DNA from: Streptomyces asiaticus
GTDB taxonomy: Bacteria; Actinomycetota; Actinomycetes; Streptomycetales; Streptomycetaceae
Direction: 5' to 3'
NCBI RefSeq assembly: GCF_018138715.1
Contig: NZ_JAGSHX010000006.1
Coordinates: 8,122,001-8,186,000 of the forward strand
Length of the DNA stretch: 64,000 bases
The notes beneath the pieces were generated by a model. It was given only the letters and a program-made list of their open reading frames with translations. It did not search any database and was not told the DNA's origin. Positions 42,526 to 52,913 of the stretch are shown piece after piece. The position numbers and the translations under genes were made by a program. Numbering within the stretch: the first letter of the stretch is position 1; the number at the start of each line of letters is the position of its first letter.

Positions 42526-44193
42526 TCAACTCTCGGCGACGGCCTCGGCGGCCGGCTCGTCCTCGACGACCGTGCGCAGCAGCTTGAAGCGCTGTAGTTT
42601 GCCGCTGGTGTTGCGCGGCAGGGCGTCCTGGAACCGCACCTCGCGCGGGTACTTGTAGGGCGCCAGGACCTGTTTGACGTGGTCCTGGATCTCCTTCGCC
42701 TTGGCCGCGCCGCCGGGCACGCCGTCCCGCAGCACCACGAAGGCGCACACGATCGAGCCGCGCTCGGGGTCGGGGCGGGCCACGACGGCGGATTCGGCGA
42801 CGTCCGGGTGGGTGTCGATGGCGGCCTCGACCTCGGGGCCGCCGATGTTGTACCCGGAGGAGACGATCATGCTGTCGCCGCGGGCGTGGTAGTGGAAGTA
42901 GCCGTCCTCGTCCCGGTGGAAGATGTCACCGGTGATGTTCCAGCCCTCCAGGACGTAGTCCCGCTGGCGTTCGCCGCCCAGATAGCGGCAGCCGACCGGG
43001 CCGATGACACCGAGTCTGCCCGGCTCCCCGGGGCCGAGTTCCGCGCCGTCGGGGCCGAGTACGGTGGCGCGGTAGCCGGGGACCGCCTTGCCCGTGGCGC
43101 CGGGCCGGATGTCGTCTCCGGCCGCGGAGATGAAGATATGCAGCAGCTCGGTGGCGCCGATGCCGTCGACGATCCTCAGACCTATGCGTGTCCGCAGCTC
43201 CTGCCAGGTGGCGCGGGGTATGTGCTCGCCCGCGGACACGCCGATGCGCAGCCCGTCCAGCCGCCGCTCGGCGCCCTCGCGCAGGATCGCCCGGTAGGCG
43301 GTGGGCGCGGTGGCCAGGGCGGTGACGCCGTGCCGCTCCACCAGCTCCGCGAGGTGCGGGGGAGTGGCGGACTCGGTCAGCAGGGCACAGGCTCCGGCGC
43401 GCAGCGGGAAGACGACCAGCATGCCGAGGCCGAAGGTGAAGGCCAGGGGCGCGGTGCAGGCCACCAGGTCGTCGGGGACCAGGCCCAGGGTGTGGCGGCC
43501 GAAGGTGTTGTCGATGGACAGGATGTCCCGGTGGAAATGCATGGTGATCTTGGGCGCGCCGGTGGATCCGGAGGTGGGGCCGAGCAGCGCCACATCGTCG
43601 GCGGCGGTGTCCACGCCGGTGAACTCACCGGACTTGGCCGCGGCCCTGGCCACCAGGTCCGCCGGGCCGCTGCCGCCGTACTCCACCACCGTGAGACCGG
43701 GCAACGCGGTGTCCCGGACCGTGCGGACGTCATCGGCGAACCGGTGGTCCACCAGGGCGATCGACGGCAGGGTGCGCTCGGCCACGGGGACGAGCTCCCG
43801 GGTGCGCAGGGCGGCCATCGTGGCCACCACCACACCACCCGCCTTGAGGATGCCGAGCCAGGCGGCCACCGTCCAGGGGTTGTTGGGCGAGCGCAGCAGG
43901 ACCCGCTGCCCCGGCACCAGGCCCAGGTCCTCGGTGAGCACCTGGGCCACCTGATGGGCGCGGACGCGCAGTTCGCCGTACGTCCACACCTCGCCGGACG
44001 GGGTGCGCAGGGCGGGGCGGTCGGGGCCGAACAGCGCGGTGGGGGTGTCGATGAGCTCGGTGGCCGCGTTGAGCCGGTCCGGGTAGCGCAGTTCCGGCGT
44101 GGTGAACTCGATGACCGGCCACAGGTGTGCGGGGGGCAGCTGGTCGCGGGTGAAGGTGTCGAGGTGCGCCGAGGGGGAGAGGGGAAGAGTCAC
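42526..44193 (-). CDS. Aryl-CoA ligase (benzoate/2-aminobenzoate-CoA ligase family)
   Basis: A 555-residue adenylate-forming enzyme. The P-loop reads GPTSGSTGAPK, the A8 region has GWNITGDIFHRDEDG, and the C-terminal catalytic Lys is in PRNTSGKLQRFKLL. The DGIGATELLHIFIS stretch is typical of benzoate-CoA-type ligases. It activates an aromatic acid for the hydroxylase encoded next. The start is a GTG at 44193 with GGAAGGA upstream. It is the third of four minus-strand genes (cupin, thioesterase, ligase, hydroxylase). Salicylate or anthranilate are the main candidate acids. Confidence 0.9.
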   Translation of the reverse strand: MTLPLSPSAHLDTFTRDQLPPAHLWPVIEFTTPELRYPDRLNAATELIDTPTALFGPDRPALRTPSGEVWTYGELRVRAHQVAQVLTEDLGLVPGQRVLLRSPNNPWTVAAWLGILKAGGVVVATMAALRTRELVPVAERTLPSIALVDHRFADDVRTVRDTALPGLTVVEYGGSGPADLVARAAAKSGEFTGVDTAADDVALLGPTSGSTGAPKITMHFHRDILSIDNTFGRHTLGLVPDDLVACTAPLAFTFGLGMLVVFPLRAGACALLTESATPPHLAELVERHGVTALATAPTAYRAILREGAERRLDGLRIGVSAGEHIPRATWQELRTRIGLRIVDGIGATELLHIFISAAGDDIRPGATGKAVPGYRATVLGPDGAELGPGEPGRLGVIGPVGCRYLGGERQRDYVLEGWNITGDIFHRDEDGYFHYHARGDSMIVSSGYNIGGPEVEAAIDTHPDVAESAVVARPDPERGSIVCAFVVLRDGVPGGAAKAKEIQDHVKQVLAPYKYPREVRFQDALPRNTSGKLQRFKLLRTVVEDEPAAEAVAES

Positions 44194-45136: not shown

Positions 45137-45618
45137 CGGCGGTCCAGCCAGTCGCGCAGCTCGGTGTCGGCGATATCGGGCAGGTTGACCACGATGTTCT
45201 CCGGTGTCCGGGTGGTCATCCAGGTCAGCGGCTTGGTACGGGAGAGGTTGCACTCCACGTGCGGCATGTACGGCGGCACGAAGACCCAGTCGCCCTCCTC
45301 CATGTCCACGTAGTCCCGGAGCTCCTCGCCGAAGTAGATGCGGGCCCGGCCGGACAGGACATAGCCACCGGTCTCGGCCTCGCCGTGGTGATGGGTCACC
45401 GAGCGATAGCCCGGTTCGTTGCTGACCTTGCCGAACCACAGGCGGGTGGCCGGGGTGTGCTGGATGCTCACCCCCGAGACCCGGACGGCGCCGCCCGAGT
45501 CGGCGGTGTTCGCGCTCTCGAGGCCGCCACGCGTCACCACGGGGGCGACGATGCCGCTCGGCAGCCGGTACATCGAATTGTCGCCCTCGAGGCGGTACTT
45601 GCTCAGATCGGGCTCCAT
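45133..45618 (-). CDS. Cupin domain protein of the aryl-CoA cluster
   Basis: A 161-residue single-domain cupin. Metal-binding motifs are THHHGEAETGGYVLSG (two His and Glu) and the later FVPPYMPHVECN with the third His, so a mononuclear metal centre is expected. It is the first gene of the four-gene minus-strand operon and starts at an ATG behind GGAG. It could be a dioxygenase or isomerase acting on the aryl-CoA product, or an intermediate-binding protein; it is too short to be a gentisate dioxygenase of the usual bicupin kind. Confidence 0.85.
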   Translation of the reverse strand: MEPDLSKYRLEGDNSMYRLPSGIVAPVVTRGGLESANTADSGGAVRVSGVSIQHTPATRLWFGKVSNEPGYRSVTHHHGEAETGGYVLSGRARIYFGEELRDYVDMEEGDWVFVPPYMPHVECNLSRTKPLTWMTTRTPENIVVNLPDIADTELRDWLDRR

Positions 45619-45742
45619 GGGGTCGGCTCCGTTCAGTCGGGGACCAGGATCCGATGTCTCGTGTTTCTCACGGTCGTCATCTAAAGTCAATACACCTGCC
45701 CGGCCGTGGGGCAGGACGGAACACAACCGAGCCGGAGGCGCC

Positions 45743-46162
45743 ATGACCCCCGTCCCCGTGAACCCGCCCGATCTGCCGAAGCCCAGCGGCTACTCACACG
45801 GAACACTCGCCGGAAACACCCTCCACCTGGGAGGACAGACCGCCCTCGATGCCAATATGAAGATCGTTCCGGGGGGTATCGTCGAGCAGTTCCGGCAGGC
45901 GTTCGGCAATGTGCTCACCACGCTGCGCGAGGCCGGCGGGCGGCCCGAGGACCTGGTGAGCGTGACCATCTACCTCACCGACATCCCCGACTACCAGGCG
46001 CACGGCAAGGAGATCGGCAAGGTCTGGCGCGAGCTCGCCGGGCCGGTCTACCCGGCCATGGCGGGCATCGGCTGCACGGCGCTGTGGCAGCCCGAAGCCA
46101 TGATCGAGATCCTGGGTGTGGCCGTGATACCGGAGGAGCGACTCGTGGCGCCGCGCCCGTAG
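45743..46162 (+). CDS. RidA family (YjgF/Rid) imine/enamine deaminase
   Basis: A 139-residue Rid-fold protein: LHLGGQTALDANMKIVPGG, QFRQAFGNVLTTLREAGG, and the C-terminal GIGCTALWQPEAMIEIL. Canonical RidA has an Arg near residue 105 in a TRVCVEV-like motif; here that region reads CTALWQP, so it belongs to another Rid subgroup. GGAGG lies five bases ahead of the ATG. The gene is divergent from the aryl-CoA operon and is followed by the PaaX regulator. A Rid deaminase makes sense if the pathway produces an aminated intermediate. Confidence 0.9.
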   Translation: MTPVPVNPPDLPKPSGYSHGTLAGNTLHLGGQTALDANMKIVPGGIVEQFRQAFGNVLTTLREAGGRPEDLVSVTIYLTDIPDYQAHGKEIGKVWRELAGPVYPAMAGIGCTALWQPEAMIEILGVAVIPEERLVAPRP

Positions 46163-47191: not shown

Positions 47192-47986
47192 ATGTTAGCG
47201 AAACGGGTCGGCAAACGGATCCATCTGCTCTGCGTCACCGGCGCACTGGTCGGCGGCCTCGCCCTCAGCGGTGGCACCGCGGAGGCGGGCAGCGCCCGGA
47301 GCGACGCGGGTGTCCGGGCGCTGCCCGCCGGGGTCTACTTCCAGAACGAGGGCACCGTCGAAGGGTGGTCCAACTACCCGCAGAAGCCCCAGAAGCAAGG
47401 CGTCATCCGCGATGTCACCACCCCCGCCTACAAGGGTGGCAACGCCATCGAGGCCAAGCAGACGTACATCAACGAGGGTGGTGGCTACCACTCCGAGACC
47501 GTGCAGGCGTCCACCCAGGCCGTCGGCCAGGACCGCTACTACGGCCAGGCCGTCTACATCGCCCCCAACTGGCAGTTCCACAACCAGAACGTCACCTTCC
47601 AGCAGTGGTCGCCCGAGGATCCCGAGGGCCCCTGGGAGCTGATGTTCATCCAGAACGACGAACTGCGCATCGGCGGATCCGGCGGCTTCAGCGCCAACGT
47701 CGCCAAGGTGACCGATCTGCGTGGCACATGGATCCGGATCGTCACCCGCCTCAAGTTCCACGCGACCGACGGCGCCATCGAGATCTGGGTCAACGGTGTG
47801 AAGAAGTACAGCAAGACCGGCGTCACCGTGCTGCCCAAGACGTCGAACACGGCCCGCTGGTCGTCCGGGATCTACTGCACCGGCTGGCGCGAGAACCCGC
47901 CCGCGGGCCCGTCGGAGCTCTCCGTCTTCCACGACCAGGCGCGCATCGCCAACTCCTACCGCCTCGCCGAACCCGCCAACTGGTGA
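47192..47986 (+). CDS. Secreted polysaccharide lyase-like protein (jelly-roll)
   Basis: A 264-residue exported protein with a signal peptide (basic start MLAKRVGKR, hydrophobic core, cleavage after GTAEA near residue 33). The mature part (YFQNEGTVEGWSNYPQ; AIEAKQTYINEGGGYHSE; YYGQAVYIAPNWQFHNQNV; GTWIRIVTRLKFHATDG; IEIWVNGVKKY) has the beta-jelly-roll pattern of secreted heparin-lyase-I/glucuronan-lyase-like enzymes. It probably cleaves a uronic-acid-containing glycan outside the cell. The ATG at 47192 follows GAGAGGA. It stands alone between PaaX and the inclusion-body operon. The substrate is a guess from fold. Confidence 0.7.
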   Translation: MLAKRVGKRIHLLCVTGALVGGLALSGGTAEAGSARSDAGVRALPAGVYFQNEGTVEGWSNYPQKPQKQGVIRDVTTPAYKGGNAIEAKQTYINEGGGYHSETVQASTQAVGQDRYYGQAVYIAPNWQFHNQNVTFQQWSPEDPEGPWELMFIQNDELRIGGSGGFSANVAKVTDLRGTWIRIVTRLKFHATDGAIEIWVNGVKKYSKTGVTVLPKTSNTARWSSGIYCTGWRENPPAGPSELSVFHDQARIANSYRLAEPANW

Positions 47987-48063
47987 CATACGCCCGTAGG
48001 CGGTGCGGGTGTCCGCGCCGCCTACGGGAGGCCGCTACCTGACCGCGGCCGCGGGGAGGGCCG

Positions 48064-48570
48064 TCAGGAGCGCTTCTCGATGGTGATGAACGGGTCCCAC
48101 TGGAAGTACCCGACCAGCTGCTGGTCGCTGTCCAGGATCTGGAAGTAGAAGTGGTACGTGACCTCGCCGGTCTTCTTGACGTCCGCCTCCCAGAAGTGAT
48201 CCTCGTAGTCCTGCGTCTCGAAGTCCGGCCGGTCGGCGGCCCCGTCCTTCGGGATCGGATAGGTGGCGTCGCCGATCACGACCTGCGGTGTGCTGATGAG
48301 CGGGTCGGCGCTCACGTACCGGTACAGCAGGGCGCAGTACTCGCTGTTGAGCGACAGCGTCGTCTCGCGCCACCTGATGATGTCCCTGGGGTTGGCGCGG
48401 AAGTTCAGCTCGGCCCCCGAGGTGCCGACGACGCGGTCCTGGCGCGTCGTCATATAGATCAGGCTCTGGTCGACATACGTCGGCTCGGTGTAGTCCTTTG
48501 ACGCGTCGGGATACTGCTTGGCGATCGAGTACGCGTCGAACGCGATCAGCACGTTAATGATTTCCGACAT
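48064..48570 (-). CDS. PixA/AidA-type inclusion body protein
   Basis: A 168-residue cytoplasmic protein of the inclusion-body family: MSEIINVLIAFDAYSIAKQYP, YVDQSLIYMTTRQDRVVGT, AELNFRANPRDIIRWRETTLSL (in parts), then a C-terminal YHFYFQILDSDQQLVGYFQWDPFI. PixA makes crystalline inclusions in Xenorhabdus and AidA is a quorum-sensing-controlled protein of Burkholderia; molecular function is unknown in both. Here it is the last gene, four bases after the TPP enzyme, in a three-gene operon. Association with amino-acid oxidation enzymes is not one that I know as described. Confidence 0.85.
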   Translation of the reverse strand: MSEIINVLIAFDAYSIAKQYPDASKDYTEPTYVDQSLIYMTTRQDRVVGTSGAELNFRANPRDIIRWRETTLSLNSEYCALLYRYVSADPLISTPQVVIGDATYPIPKDGAADRPDFETQDYEDHFWEADVKKTGEVTYHFYFQILDSDQQLVGYFQWDPFITIEKRS

Positions 48571-48574
48571 GTTC

Positions 48575-50422
48575 CTACTCCCCTTTGACTTTGTACGCCA
48601 TCGCCCGCGGGTAGTCGTGCCGGTGCAGGCGGACCCGGACCAGCAGTGGTCCGGAGTTGACCGGGTCGGTCGGATCGGTGAGGCGGGCCAGCAGCTCGTC
48701 CAGCTCGGAGGTGTGCGCCACGCTGACCCCGTGCGCCGGGGTCTTCTTGCCGGAGAAGACATCCGCCAGCCGCTCGTAGTGCCACGGGTGGAGGACGTTG
48801 TAGAAGTCCGCGCCGTCCGTGTCATCGGCGCCGTGGGCGTCCCGGTCCGCGTAGTAGGACGGGTGCACCAGCATCTGCTCGATGCCGTAGAAGTGTCCGT
48901 TGTCCATCACGAACACCACCGACCGCAGCCCCAGCCTGGTGTGGGTGGAGATCTCCTGGCAGGTCTCCTGGAAGGCACCGTCGCCGACGAACACCATCGG
49001 GCGGGCGTGGCCGCGCTCGGGGGCGAGCGCCGCGCCGGTGGCCGCGCCCACGGACCAGCCGATGGACAGCCAGCTGACCTGCGACAGGAAGCCGCCCGCT
49101 GGCAGGGTCAGGTTCATCGAGCCGATGAGGGAGAACGCGGCGTCGGAGACCACCGTCCAGCTCTCCCGGGTCTCCTTGGCCAGGAAGTGGTTGATCCGGT
49201 CGAACACCCCGTCGTACGTGAGCCGTTCGCCGGACCCGGACGACGAGCCGCCGGCGCGGAGCGTCGTGGCGCGGTGCTCCTCGAGGGAGGCGGGACGGTC
49301 CTCGGCCGCGCCGTGGTGGGCGTGGGCCTCGGCGAAGTAGTCGGCGGTCAGGCCACCGGAGCCGAAGCGCGCCACCAGCGCGTCCTGGAGGGCGGGTATC
49401 AGCCGGGCGAGCTGGACGTCGGGGAAGTACTGGGTGCCGACGCTGACACCGCCCCGGGCGGCCACCACCCAGTCCGTGCCGACAGCCAGTTCACCGCCGA
49501 GGTTCTTCGAGGTGGACCAGGTGCCGAGGCCGATCCGGCAGGTGGCCCAGTCCTTGAAGATGGAGTGCACCTCCGGGTGGCTGGCCTTGCCGTTGTAGAC
49601 GCCGTGGAACTGCGGCAGCCGCTCGTCGAGGACGGCCTTGGCGCCGACGGTGGTGCAGAACGGCACGCCGGTGGCCTGTGTCAGATCGCCGAGCTGCCGG
49701 TCGAGGCGGAACCGCTCGACCTCCTCGCCCGCCCATACGATCGGGCGGGGCCTGCCGTCCGGGCCGGGGTGCTCCTCGACCAGCGCGAGGATCGCGGCGA
49801 CGGCCTTGTCCAGCATGGCCTGGTTGCGCGCGCTGAACGGCCGCTCGCGGCGCAGCAGCGGCTCCTCGGCGACGGCACACGGCTCGTCCCACAGATCCTC
49901 CATCACCTCCAGATAGACGGGCCTGCGCGTCGACAGACAGGCGGTGAGCGCGGCGTCGATCTGGCCCGGGGCGAGGCCGGGGTTGGAGATGACCTGCGCT
50001 TCCACGGTGACCTGCCGGTAGGCGTCCAGATTGCTCTCCCGGCGCGGGCTCATATGGGAGGTGAACAGGCCGAGAGCGCGGTAGTTCTGCCACTGCTCGT
50101 ACGGCGGGCAGGCGTTGATGGCGATGAGCGGGACATGCTCCACATACGCCCCGCCGCAGGCGTTGAGCAGGTTGAACGCGCCGACACTGTAGGTGACCGC
50201 GGCCGCGCCGATGCCGTGGAGACGGGCGTAGGAGTCGGCGGCCTGGCCCGCGCCGCCCTCGGTGGGGGTGCCGACCCACTCGACATCCCCCTCGGCCCGC
50301 AGGGTGGTGAGGAACGGGCCGAGGTGGTTGCCGGGTACCCCGAACAGATGGGTGATGCCCAGCTCGGCCAGGCGGCGGGCCAGATAGCGGGCGACCGTGC
50401 ACTCGGGGGTGATCGCGGTCAT
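48575..50422 (-). CDS. TPP-dependent enzyme related to 2-oxoacid decarboxylases, catalytic residues altered
   Basis: A 615-residue thiamine diphosphate enzyme with the PDC/IPDC layout. The cofactor-activating Glu (E55 in GTPTEGGAG) and the metal motif [14 protein letters not shown] are present. But the decarboxylase Asp is Asn (N32 in VPGNHLG), and the His-His pair of pyruvate decarboxylases is Asn-Tyr (N113-Y114 in [10 protein letters not shown]). So it may be a carboligase, or a lyase with other chemistry. The ATG overlaps the stop of the oxidase gene (ATGA), so a 2-oxoacid made by that oxidase is the logical substrate. Confidence 0.85.
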
Positions 50423-52455
50423 GAACCGCCCTCCTGGTCCGGGCCCGGGGTGGTGAGGGGCGGTGCCTGGTGGACGGCGGTGGCGGCGCGGACGGCGCTC
50501 TCCAGGGCGCCCTCGATCCAGGCGTGTTTGAGGGAGGTGTGCTCCCCGGCGAAGTGCACCGGGCCCTCGGGGCGGGAGGCGTCCAGATGGAAGCTGGTCA
50601 TCTGGTGCGGGGTGTACGTGGCGGCCTCGCCGAAGGCGTACGGGTCGCGGGCCCAGCTCTTGGTGGCGCCCAGGCCGGTGAAGAACACCTCGATACGGCG
50701 CCCGTGCAGGGCCTGGAGGTTGCGCAGGGCGTAGACATAGCGCTCCGCCTCACGCATGGAGTCCCAGCGCGCGGCGTCGTCGGACCAGGAGTACGAGGCG
50801 AGCACCACACCGCCGGTGCTGCCCTCGACCGGGTGCGAGGGGTAGTAGATGAACCGGTTGGGGTTGTCGGTGGCGGAGCCGCCACCGAAGCAGTGGGTGG
50901 CGGGTCGTACGGCCGGGCCGCGCAGTGGCATGACGCTGTTGACCTGGCGTAACTCCTCGGTGACCCCGCTGTCCTTGACCGCCGCGCCGAGCAGGTCGCG
51001 GCCCGCCTCGGCGAGCGCGGGCACGGGATCGGGTCCGGTCTCGCCGCCGCGCTGGTAGTACTCGTAGAGGCCCGGGGTGATGCTGTCGAGTTCCTCGCGC
51101 CAGTCGTCCTCGGTGAACTCCCACCACCGGTGGCTGAACTCCAGCAGCACCTTGGTGGCCGAGTCGTAGTGGGTCTCGATGATGGCGCGGCGCTTCTTGT
51201 ACGCCATCGAGGGGACGATCTCCACGAAGCGCAGGGTGGAGAACGGGATGGTGACGATGGCCAGGTCAGCGGTCCACAGCCGGGTGGGGCCCGCCGGGTT
51301 GTCCTCGGCCACGGTCTGCACGGCCACGCCCCATCCGTCGGGTCCGACGGCACCGGTGCCCTCGGGGGTGGAGTCGCGGCTGGGGTCGAAGTACTCCAGG
51401 CGGATCATGCGGTGGCCGAACCGCACCTCGTCGCGCAGGCCCCGGTGGAGGGCGTCCGGGAGTCGCCAGCTGCCGCCGGGTATCTCCCAGTAGCGCACAC
51501 CGGGGTTGATGTCGGTGTGGCTCAGGAAGCTGTGGAAGAAGGAGAGATGGAGCCGCGAGGACATGTTCTCCAGCGTTCCGACCGCCTCGATGGCCTCGTC
51601 GCTGAGCCCGGCGTAGTCGCGCAGGAAGCCGCCCATCGAATAGCCGTCGAAGTCATGGATCACCCGGGCCCAGCCCTCGATCCACTCCTCGAGCGGCTTG
51701 TTGACCCGCTTCCCGTCCACGACGTCGGAGTAGTAGTCCCGCACGCTCTCCAGCGCGTCGTCGACCATCTGCACGGCGGGGGCGCGGACCTCGTCATCGG
51801 TGAGGTGGAAACCCTCGTTGATCTTCTCCGGGACGGCGCTGTAGTCGGCGCGCCGCACCTGGACGCGGTTGGTGCGGATCCAGGTGTTGCCGCGCTTGTC
51901 GGGCGCGCGGAAGTCGGGGCTGTCGTCGCCGTAGGTCCAGGTGCGGCCGGTGAAGGAGGTGTACGTCACCGGGGGGAGGGGGACATCGGGGCCGCTGCCG
52001 GTGGCGGGGTCGACGTCCACGTTGTAGAACAGGCGGCGGCCGAGCCCGAGTTTGTCGACGAGGGCGAGGACGAGCGGGTGGAAGTCGGGCAGCCGCATGG
52101 CGCCGGCCTCGGCGTACTGGGCGGCGTCGTCGAACGGCTGGTGGTGCTTGGTGGTGCGGAAGGTCTTGATGCGCCCGCCGACACGGCCGGTGTTGGCCTC
52201 CAGGATGGTGACGTCGTGGCCCGCGTCCTTCAGCAGCCGGCCGGCCACCAGGCCGGTGATACCGGCGCCGATGATGAGGATCTTCTTGCGGGGGTGGCGG
52301 GTGACGCCGAGGCTGCCCGTGTCGATGAGGGTGTGGAGATAGCCGAGTTTGAGGTCGGTGTTGTCCGGTCCGATGAGGAGGAGTTCGCGGGCCAGCTTGA
52401 GACAGGTCTGCCAGCGCGCACGGGTGGCGGAGTTATCGCGTGGAGCGTCGGTCAT
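50419..52455 (-). CDS. L-amino-acid oxidase-like / flavin monoamine oxidase family protein
   Basis: A 678-residue FAD oxidase. The dinucleotide motif [17 protein letters not shown] lies at about residues 59-75, with VGGRIKTF following; the C-terminal FAD site reads [26 protein letters not shown] (in parts). Length and the 55-residue N-terminal extension resemble Streptomyces L-glutamate oxidase and bacterial L-amino-acid oxidases, but no signal peptide is seen. It would yield 2-oxoacid, ammonia and peroxide for the coupled TPP enzyme. The start lacks a ribosome site and TACGAT lies eight bases upstream, so it may be leaderless; a perfect palindrome overlaps that promoter. Confidence 0.87.
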
Positions 52456-52463
52456 AGCTTGCG

Positions 52464-52489
52464 ATCGTAGATTTGCAGAAACGGTTTCT
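52464..52489 (-). promoter_or_regulatory. Promoter with overlapping operator for the oxidase/TPP/inclusion operon
   Basis: On the minus strand TACGAT (52469-52464) is a -10 eight bases from the ATG. The perfect palindrome AGAAACGGTTTCT (52477-52489) fills the -10/-35 spacer, where a bound repressor would block polymerase. No regulator gene is adjacent. Confidence 0.5.
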
Positions 52490-52874
52490 CGTTTCCTTCA
52501 CAAGGTAATGTATGGGTAAAGTCCTAAAAAGGCGGACCTTGCGGCTGACGGAATTTCGACTTGCTGGATTTTCCCTGGCGGGAGCCCGAGATCCGGCTGA
52601 GGCGGGTGCTTCACCAGGGGGCGGAGGGGAAGGGGGCGTGGCGGCGTCGGCGCCTCGGCGAACTCGGTGGCTATGGCGGCGAAGGACGCAACGGGGCCAG
52701 GTCGGCCATGCTCGCGATATGGACGGACGTCGAACTCCTGCCCGATAATGAAGAAATGCGCGTCGCACTAATACCTATGGCCGCTCGGGTACTGTTCAGA
52801 AACCTATTCCGACGGGTCCGGCCGCCCATCCGAATGGGTTTCAGGCCGTCAAGGACGTGGCGTACGGGAAATGA
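52490..52874. other. Stretch without a recognisable gene
   Basis: The 385 bases between the operon promoter and the terminator contain several short open frames on both strands, including a 78-codon frame from 52512, but none has a ribosome site plus family-like sequence. Base composition is less GC-rich than in the neighbours (for example 52745-52805). I see nothing I can name. Confidence 0.5.
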
Positions 52875-52913
52875 GATGAGCGGGTTTCCGGGCGCGCCGG
52901 AAACCCGCTCATC
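52875..52913. terminator. Strong 17-bp hairpin, bidirectional terminator
   Basis: GATGAGCGGGTTTCCGG (52875-52891) pairs perfectly with its reverse complement (52897-52913) around a five-base loop. There is no U-run, as is usual for actinobacteria. It lies just beyond the stop of the MFS remnant on the minus strand. Confidence 0.8.

What the first reader, a model, noticed from the sequence alone, without database searches (positions are those of the whole stretch)
48064..52455. Operon coupling an L-amino-acid-oxidase-like flavoprotein, a non-canonical TPP enzyme and a PixA/AidA inclusion-body protein
Three minus-strand genes are packed with a 4-base overlap and a 4-base gap. The oxidase would make a 2-oxoacid; the TPP enzyme has the decarboxylase fold but Asn in place of the catalytic Asp (N32) and Asn-Tyr in place of the His-His pair (113-114), while the cofactor Glu (E55) and the QEIS Glu are kept. 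That points to carboligation or another fate for the intermediate rather than plain decarboxylation. The third gene belongs to an inclusion-forming family with no known activity. The combination is not one I recognise.
Basis: partly seen in the sequence, partly recalled or inferred. Interest (0 to 1): 0.78.

Follow-up and report, generated by a model that had tools for sequence, protein, structure and literature searches.

The report
Glutamate oxidase, odd decarboxylase and PixA
In Streptomyces, relatives of a glutamate-burning enzyme used in biosensors, whose job in the cell is unknown, sit in one operon with an unusual vitamin-B1 enzyme, and in one branch with an inclusion-body protein, which makes that job testable.

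Summary
The three genes are real, tightly packed and conserved. The oxidase is 66% identical to the characterised L-glutamate oxidase of Streptomyces sp. X-119-6 (StLGOX). A 98% identical StLGOX relative in another genome is followed directly by a relative of the same thiamine (TPP) enzyme, giving a context to an enzyme whose physiological function a 2015 review calls unknown. Of 39 close loci, 32 have an intact oxidase and 36 a full-span PixA; in 199 genomes of the genus all 7 PixA hits lie beside this TPP gene. Seventeen more distant streptomycete loci lack PixA; 9 have a DyP peroxidase. The TPP enzyme keeps three of five pyruvate-decarboxylase catalytic residues: Asp is Asn32 and His-His is Ser122-His123, not Asn113-Tyr114 as first read. 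Asn is fixed in the close and very distant relatives examined, but Asp stands in 14 of those 17, so Asn alone does not prove carboligation. Most likely pathway: L-glutamate to 2-oxoglutarate plus peroxide, then decarboxylation on thiamine, release or ligation undecided; PixA is a clade-specific accessory. An oxidase-decarboxylase pairing is published for Pseudoalteromonas luteoviolacea: new variant of a known kind.

The parts
50419..52455 (-). L-glutamate-oxidase-like flavoprotein, 678 aa
   Evidence: 925 bits to PDB 7e0c, 66% identical in a mafft alignment; R121, R301, H308, Y555, W557, W646 stand at StLGOX positions 124, 305, 312, 562, 564, 653 (the PDB chain used carries E at 305, a designed mutant)
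48575..50422 (-). PDC/IPDC-like thiamine-diphosphate enzyme, 615 aa; start overlaps the oxidase stop by 4 bases
   Evidence: TPP_enzyme_N, M and C domains; best PDB hits are ANC27, PDC and KdcA
50327..50329 (-). codon of Asn32, position of the catalytic Asp (D27/D28) of PDC
   Evidence: N in 159 of 160 close rows, 1 gap; N in 120 of 120 distant rows
50258..50260 (-). codon of Glu55, cofactor Glu (kept)
   Evidence: 169 of 169, 120 of 120
50054..50059 (-). codons of Ser122-His123, register of the PDC His-His pair
   Evidence: H123 169 of 169, 120 of 120
48878..48880 (-). codon of Glu515, position of PDC E473/E477 (kept)
   Evidence: 169 of 169, 120 of 120
48064..48570 (-). PixA/AidA family protein, 168 aa; 4-base gap after TPP, GGGGAG ribosome-site-like stretch inside the end of the TPP gene (by eye)
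52464..52469 (-). TACGAT, -10-like hexamer ending 8 bases before the oxidase ATG; no Shine-Dalgarno seen by a simple pattern (leaderless start inferred)
   Evidence: TA[CG]GAT at the same place in 37 of 37 clade A upstream regions examined, window included

Best explanation
A conserved glutamate-processing operon. Step 1 (inferred from close homology): the flavoprotein oxidises L-glutamate to 2-oxoglutarate, ammonia and H2O2. Step 2 (inferred): the PDC-like ThDP enzyme takes the 2-oxoacid, decarboxylates it on ThDP and either releases the aldehyde (succinic semialdehyde if the substrate is 2-oxoglutarate) or joins the bound carbanion to an acceptor; the Asn32/Ser122-His123/Glu55/Glu515 site may slow release, by analogy with yeast PDC D28 variants (recalled), so ligation is possible but not shown. 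Step 3 (open): PixA is a clade-specific accessory, probably not needed for the chemistry because sister operons lack it; an inclusion role is the family's reported behaviour. The genes are probably transcribed together from a conserved leaderless promoter (inferred).
For: Oxidase: 925 bits and 66% to StLGOX; StLGOX is 98, 93, 90 and 89% identical to the oxidases of L066, L068, L070 and L069, each followed by this TPP family. Genome scan: TPP in 14 of 199 genomes of the window's genus; oxidases of 64% identity or more in 13, each beside TPP; PixA in 7, each beside TPP. 9 of 9 sampled oxidase paralogues of 44-49% had no TPP, PixA or DyP within the 11-15 kb fetched. Loci: oxidase intact in 32 of 39 clade A and 7 of 9 Kitasatospora-type loci, PixA full-span in 36 of 39 clade A. 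Elsewhere: a Solirubrobacteraceae-type genome pairs an N-type TPP with a flavin amino-oxidase 8 bases upstream, and P. luteoviolacea has an LAAO with an 'indolepyruvate decarboxylase' in a putative operon (PMC6316408, passages). Arg127 is in 30 of 30 streptomycete rows and 0 of 18 other rows of the tree set, a candidate carboxylate binder. dN/dS 0.02-0.49 in the 16 gene pairs tried. Promoter-like hexamer 37 of 37.
Against: No activity of the window proteins is known. R301 and H308 are also in 9 of 9 paralogues of 44-49%, so these residues do not prove glutamate specificity. The oxidase is absent or broken in 7 of 39 clade A loci and absent in 2 of 9 Kitasatospora-type loci while TPP stays intact, so the pair is not obligatory. 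Asp replaces Asn in some orthologues. No neighbour other than oxidase, TPP and PixA recurs in more than 5 of 48 loci, so no gene that would use an aldehyde or an acyloin is a fixed part. The TPP model was too poor to place the site in 3D (pLDDT 59.6).
Confidence: 0.5

Rival explanations
1. Plain 2-oxoacid decarboxylase: the Asn/Ser-His site is an alternative but ordinary decarboxylase site, and the operon is a simple glutamate (or amino acid) breakdown route to an aldehyde.
For: Best NCBIfam profile is indolepyruvate decarboxylase (176.6 bits); Asn and Asp alternate among orthologues, e.g. L066/L068 (N) against L069/L070 (D), all four with oxidase plus TPP; the authors of PMC6316408 suggest a catabolic role for the P. 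luteoviolacea pair (passage).
Against: Catalytic Asp replaced in 159 of 159 readable close and 120 of 120 distant rows, first His replaced in 169 of 169 and 120 of 120; profile score far under the curated cut-off of 946; no conserved neighbour that would use an aldehyde.
Confidence: 0.35
2. The operon is a peroxide weapon: the oxidase makes H2O2 against competitors or grazers when cells lyse; TPP, DyP or PixA dispose of by-products or add a second defence, PixA by analogy with nematocidal AidA.
For: H2O2 made by Pl-LAAO is antimicrobial (PMC6316408, passages); AidA is required for virulence in C. elegans (PMC9060813, passage); a DyP peroxidase is linked in 9 of 17 sister loci.
Against: Four clade A loci keep start and end of the oxidase but lost its middle in frame, while TPP is intact in all four and PixA is full-span in three and cut short in L041, so the oxidase is not what is always kept.
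Confidence: 0.15
3. The TPP enzyme (with PixA) acts on a substrate of its own and the oxidase is an optional supplier being lost.
For: Oxidase absent or broken in 7 of 39 clade A and absent in 2 of 9 Kitasatospora-type loci with TPP intact; in the oxidase-less pair L028/L053 dN/dS is 0.40 for TPP and 0.02 for PixA.
Against: Oxidases of 64% identity or more are beside TPP in 13 of 13 genomes, in clade A and in its sisters. 2-oxoglutarate is a central metabolite, so oxidase loss does not exclude it as substrate.
Confidence: 0.2
4. One reading: loss of both Asp and the His-His pair makes a dedicated carboligase.
For: Asn32 in 159 of 159 readable clade A rows; position 28 of PDC influences decarboxylase activity (PMC3534367, passage) and a cited title ties D28 and E477 to carboligase side products (title in its reference list only).
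Against: The second His is kept; N/D alternation.
Confidence: 0.2

Closest known systems
L-glutamate oxidase of Streptomyces sp. X-119-6 (StLGOX; PDB 2e1m, 7e0c)
   Same: 66% identity, substrate-site residues kept; StLGOX is 98% identical to an oxidase directly upstream of this TPP family
   Different: The genome of X-119-6 was not available, so its own operon was not seen; activity of the window protein unknown
Pl-LAAO operon of Pseudoalteromonas luteoviolacea (PMC6316408)
   Same: Flavin amino-acid oxidase with an indolepyruvate-decarboxylase-like gene in a putative operon (passage); P. luteoviolacea proteins P0283 and P0294 belong to the N-type relatives of our TPP
   Different: Broad substrate range, Spondin_N and two-component genes instead of PixA (passages); the oxidase is of another family if, as recalled, PDB 7og2 is Pl-LAAO; that P0283 is the operon's own decarboxylase was not checked
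Pyruvate, indolepyruvate and branched-chain 2-oxoacid decarboxylases (2vbi, 1ovm, 2vbf)
   Same: Same three domains, Glu55, His123, Glu515, GDG and N cofactor motif
   Different: Asn for catalytic Asp, Ser for first His, longer chain (615 aa), 28% identity between the L066 relative and KdcA pieces
PixA/AidA family (PF12306; 4lzk, 4pib, 4q52)
   Same: Family score and fold
   Different: In the two annotated Burkholderia regions read, PixA lies beside another PixA gene and glycosyltransferase genes, not beside an oxidase and TPP gene; a Pseudoalteromonas region has no annotation and no oxidase or TPP match
DyP-LGOX-TPP operon of Kitasatospora and Streptomyces plasmids (seen here, no paper found)
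   Same: Same oxidase and TPP pair
   Different: DyP peroxidase first, no PixA, TPP with Asp at position 32

Membership tests
L-glutamate oxidase (StLGOX type) | Close full-length homology to StLGOX | tested here: met
   66% identity, 925 bits over residues 17-666
L-glutamate oxidase (StLGOX type) | Arg305, His312 and the other substrate-site residues | tested here: met
   R301 in 52 of 53 aligned rows (the mutant PDB chain has E), H308 in 53 of 53, R121 in 52 of 53 with one gap; not discriminating, as R121, R301 and H308 are also in 9 of 9 distant paralogues
L-glutamate oxidase (StLGOX type) | Strict L-glutamate activity, proteolytic maturation | not testable with these tools
   needs protein
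Pyruvate/indolepyruvate decarboxylase | Catalytic Asp (PDC D27/D28) | tested here: not met
   Asn32, 159 of 159 readable close relatives
Pyruvate/indolepyruvate decarboxylase | His-His pair | tested here: not met
   Ser122-His123: only the second His kept
Pyruvate/indolepyruvate decarboxylase | Cofactor Glu51 and catalytic Glu473/477 | tested here: met
   E55 and E515, 169 of 169
Pyruvate/indolepyruvate decarboxylase | Curated NCBIfam score for indolepyruvate decarboxylase | tested here: not met
   176.6 bits against a cut-off of 946
PixA (PF12306) | Pfam gathering score and fold | tested here: met
PixA (PF12306) | Forms inclusions in stationary phase | not testable with these tools
   needs cells
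Benzaldehyde lyase / AHAS type carboligases | Best sequence match to that group rather than to PDC | tested here: not met
   PDC-group chains score 111-163 bits, benzaldehyde lyase 50-52, the best acetolactate synthase 65 (60 of 79 hits shown)

The most novel reading that the evidence does not exclude
Position 32 is a natural evolutionary switch: Asn-type enzymes are dedicated ligases that join the C4 unit made from glutamate to an aldehyde or oxoacid acceptor, Asp-type ones release the aldehyde; the switch travels with the partner gene (DyP peroxidase of 60% identity or more in 9 of 14 Asp-type and 0 of 3 Asn-type sister loci and 0 of 39 clade A loci; PixA only with Asn). PixA inclusions would house the pathway or its product. 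The loci are related, so these counts are not independent.
Probability: 0.18. Interest if true: 0.75.

Novelty: new variant of a known kind. Interest (0 to 1): 0.52.

Why it matters
L-glutamate oxidase of Streptomyces is used in glutamate biosensors, and a review says its physiological function is unknown (PMC4699246, passage). The four relatives of 89-98% identity to StLGOX found here each stand before a ThDP-enzyme gene, which makes that function directly testable. The family also offers a natural Asp/Asn series at a catalytic position of PDC-type enzymes, and ties the poorly understood PixA/AidA family to a metabolic operon in Streptomyces.

Tried and rejected
AlphaFold2 on the TPP enzyme with a 32-row alignment gave pLDDT 59.6 and was not used; the PixA model was good (90.0). 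In NCBIfam no listed match of the oxidase or the TPP enzyme reached its cut-off (25 of 26 and 25 of 48 listed) and PixA had none. Rfam found nothing in 47900-52900. PixA in the phylum sample: 1 of 296 genomes, our own; class sample: 2 of 345, the second a 54-position fragment with a stop and no TPP or oxidase nearby. TPP relatives in the phylum sample (alignment A2, E up to 1e-90): 2 of 296, our own and G297. N-type TPP of the distant kind: 1 of 119 genomes in the class of G297, itself. A DyP of the Kitasatospora kind is not evident in our genome: one weak match, 34 bits. A GAAAC..GTTTC palindrome before the oxidase is not conserved (3 of 24). Rhizobium and Sinorhizobium plasmid TPPs (2 regions read of 21 records) have Asp-Tyr and His-His and no LGOX-like match beside them, though one has an FAD-binding oxidoreductase gene on the other strand; taken as ordinary decarboxylases. 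The gene context of the gammaproteobacterial and Bacteroidota N-type relatives, and of PixA relatives from Kitasatospora, Nonomuraea, Amycolatopsis, Saccharothrix and other actinomycetes, was not read. Paper searches: searches found no paper; some searches listed papers on other matters, from which passages of PMC9060813, PMC10694123, PMC11055115, PMC4699246, PMC6316408, PMC3534367 and PMC4428508 were seen (the last gave nothing useful). None of these listings or passages describes the Streptomyces operon; the library lacks most subscription journals.
Full report
What is there. The window is a Streptomyces chromosome stretch (G000, 11.88 Mb in six contigs; nearest named TPP relatives are S. 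asiaticus and S. violaceusniger-group strains). On the minus strand lie a 678-aa flavoprotein (50419-52455), a 615-aa TPP enzyme (48575-50422) and a 168-aa PixA protein (48064-48570), with a 4-base overlap and a 4-base gap. Pfam confirms all three families.

The oxidase. The best solved relatives are L-glutamate oxidases of 925 and 897 bits; that these chains are from Streptomyces sp. X-119-6 follows from PMC10694123 (passage) and recall. Alignment gives 66% identity, and R121, R301, H308, Y555, W557 and W646 stand at StLGOX positions 124, 305, 312, 562, 564 and 653 (the chain used is a mutant with E at 305, and the list of substrate-site residues is recalled; a passage of PMC10694123 describes R305E and R305D variants used with L-arginine). 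In 53 aligned rows (window, StLGOX, 51 loci) R301 is in 52, R121 in 52 (one gap) and the others in all 53. R121, R301 and H308 are also in 9 of 9 sampled paralogues of 44-49% identity, so they support but do not prove glutamate as substrate.

The operon holds close kin of the known enzyme. StLGOX is 98% identical to the oxidase of L066, 93% to L068, 90% to L070 and 89% to L069, and each of these is followed by a relative of our TPP enzyme. StLGOX therefore falls inside the TPP-linked group; its own neighbourhood was not seen. In 199 genomes of the window's genus, TPP relatives (E up to 1e-100) occur in 14, and oxidases of 64% identity or more in 13, each beside TPP; the fourteenth TPP locus (G141) has TPP and PixA but only a 223-aa oxidase remnant. 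The other 54 oxidase hits, 48-54% identical over the aligned part, lie at other places; nine were fetched and none had TPP, PixA or DyP within the 11-15 kb read.

Conservation of the trio. A scan of genome contigs with two peptide patterns gave 48 loci. In the 39 closer ones (clade A, 71-97% TPP identity by best segment) the oxidase is intact in 32, partial in 5 and absent in 2; PixA spans over 90% of the query in 36, is partial in 1 and absent in 2; one of the 36, L040, has an internal in-frame gap in PixA. In the 9 Kitasatospora-type loci (57-59%) the oxidase is intact in 7, PixA in 0 and DyP full in 5. Six further Streptomyces loci (L066-L071) and the two plasmid loci read of ten Streptomyces plasmid records (L058, L059) also have oxidase plus TPP and no PixA; with them, DyP of 60% identity or more is linked in 9 of 17 non-clade-A loci, and L046 and L049 hold DyP remnants, L071 a weak one. 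L067 has another DyP (29%), not close-packed. In L047 DyP stands directly before TPP and the oxidase is missing. PixA was found in 7 of 199 genomes of the genus, all 7 just downstream of TPP; G009 has oxidase and TPP without PixA. In a crude ORF clustering of the 48 loci no flanking family other than these genes (and ORFs antisense to them) recurs in more than 5 loci.

Broken oxidases. [quoted passage not shown] breakpoints differ. L033 has a frameshift. TPP is full in all five. L028 and L053 are close kin, so the number of independent events may be three or four. For L028/L053, dN/dS is 0.40 (TPP) and 0.02 (PixA): the rest of the operon is still constrained. This speaks against the oxidase being indispensable and fits a substrate, such as 2-oxoglutarate, that the cell can also make otherwise.

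The TPP active site. phmmer and MAFFT alignments with ANC27, a PDC and KdcA place the catalytic Asp on N32, the cofactor Glu on E55, the His-His pair on S122-H123 and the last Glu on E515; the same register is seen for the distant relative P0247 against 9msa. N32-H33 stands in 159 of 160 close rows (one gap), some rows being the same protein from two sources. N at 32 and H at 123 stand in 120 of 120 distant relatives, with Ser (103) or Ala (17) at 122; the named ones among them come from a Solirubrobacteraceae assembly, gammaproteobacteria, Bacteroidota and a myxobacterium, and only the best 120 of 576 were listed. Asp stands at 32 in the 9 Kitasatospora-type loci, L058, L059, L069, L070 and L071, and Asn in L066, L067, L068. 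The tree needs at least three N/D changes, with L066/L068 (N) beside L069/L070 (D). R127, just after the His site, is Arg in 30 of 30 streptomycete rows and in 0 of 18 other rows of the tree set; I suggest it binds the distal carboxylate (inference).

Wider pattern. In the Solirubrobacteraceae-type genome G297 the N-type TPP starts 8 bases after a 663-aa flavin amino-oxidase that resembles PDB 7c4k (ancestral L-amino acid oxidase) and 7og2 (a 653-residue amine oxidoreductase) at 739 and 725 bits, and matches LGOX only weakly. PMC6316408 (passages) reports Pl-LAAO, 653 aa, in a putative operon with an indolepyruvate decarboxylase in P. luteoviolacea; that 7og2 is Pl-LAAO is recalled. So pairing of an amino-acid oxidase with this kind of TPP enzyme is seen with at least two oxidase families. 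That precedent is why I call this a new variant of a known kind.

Expression. TA[CG]GAT sits 8 bases before the oxidase ATG in 37 of 37 clade A upstream regions examined (window, 32 loci with an intact oxidase, 4 with a deleted one), with no Shine-Dalgarno match found by a simple pattern. I infer a leaderless transcript and a shared promoter, kept even where the oxidase is gutted.

How it likely works. Glutamate to 2-oxoglutarate plus H2O2 by the oxidase (inferred from homology, fairly strong); ThDP-bound decarboxylation by the TPP enzyme (inferred from domains and kept residues); release or ligation undecided; PixA accessory, role open. I put 0.5 on this outline. The rivals and their tests are listed separately.

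Limits. Genome samples are drawn evenly from larger groups; the contig scan used two peptide patterns typical of streptomycete members, so it says little on other lineages; counts are for the sets named, and related loci are not independent. Identity values come from different aligners and differ by a few per cent.

Noticed in passing
52464-52469 and clade A loci upstream of the oxidase: TACGAT/TAGGAT 8 bases before the start codon in 37 of 37 upstream regions examined, suggesting a conserved leaderless promoter, also kept in the four loci with a gutted oxidase.
   Followed up: partly
L028, L029, L041, L053: In-frame internal deletions of the oxidase gene that keep both ends, with TPP intact (PixA full-span in three, cut short in L041).
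   Followed up: partly
L043, L045, L047, L048, L050, L058, L059, L069, L070: DyP-type peroxidase gene close upstream of the oxidase (of TPP in L047), in loci whose TPP has Asp at position 32; remnants in L046 and L049.
   Followed up: partly
L053 (Streptomyces viridosporus NRRL 2414): The oxidase is deleted in this strain although an L-glutamate oxidase from S. viridosporus R111 is used in PMC11055115 (abstract passage); strain difference or another gene.
   Followed up: no
L040 9840-10400: PixA with an internal in-frame gap, open reading frame kept.
   Followed up: no
window 45419-46162 (+) and 42526-44193 (-): By eye, a RidA-like imine deaminase and an acyl-CoA-ligase-like gene near the operon; in the ORF clustering their families recur only in 3 and 4 loci of the nearest species.
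   Followed up: no
L085 7676-7840: A PixA fragment with a stop in another Streptomyces genome, without oxidase or TPP nearby.
   Followed up: partly
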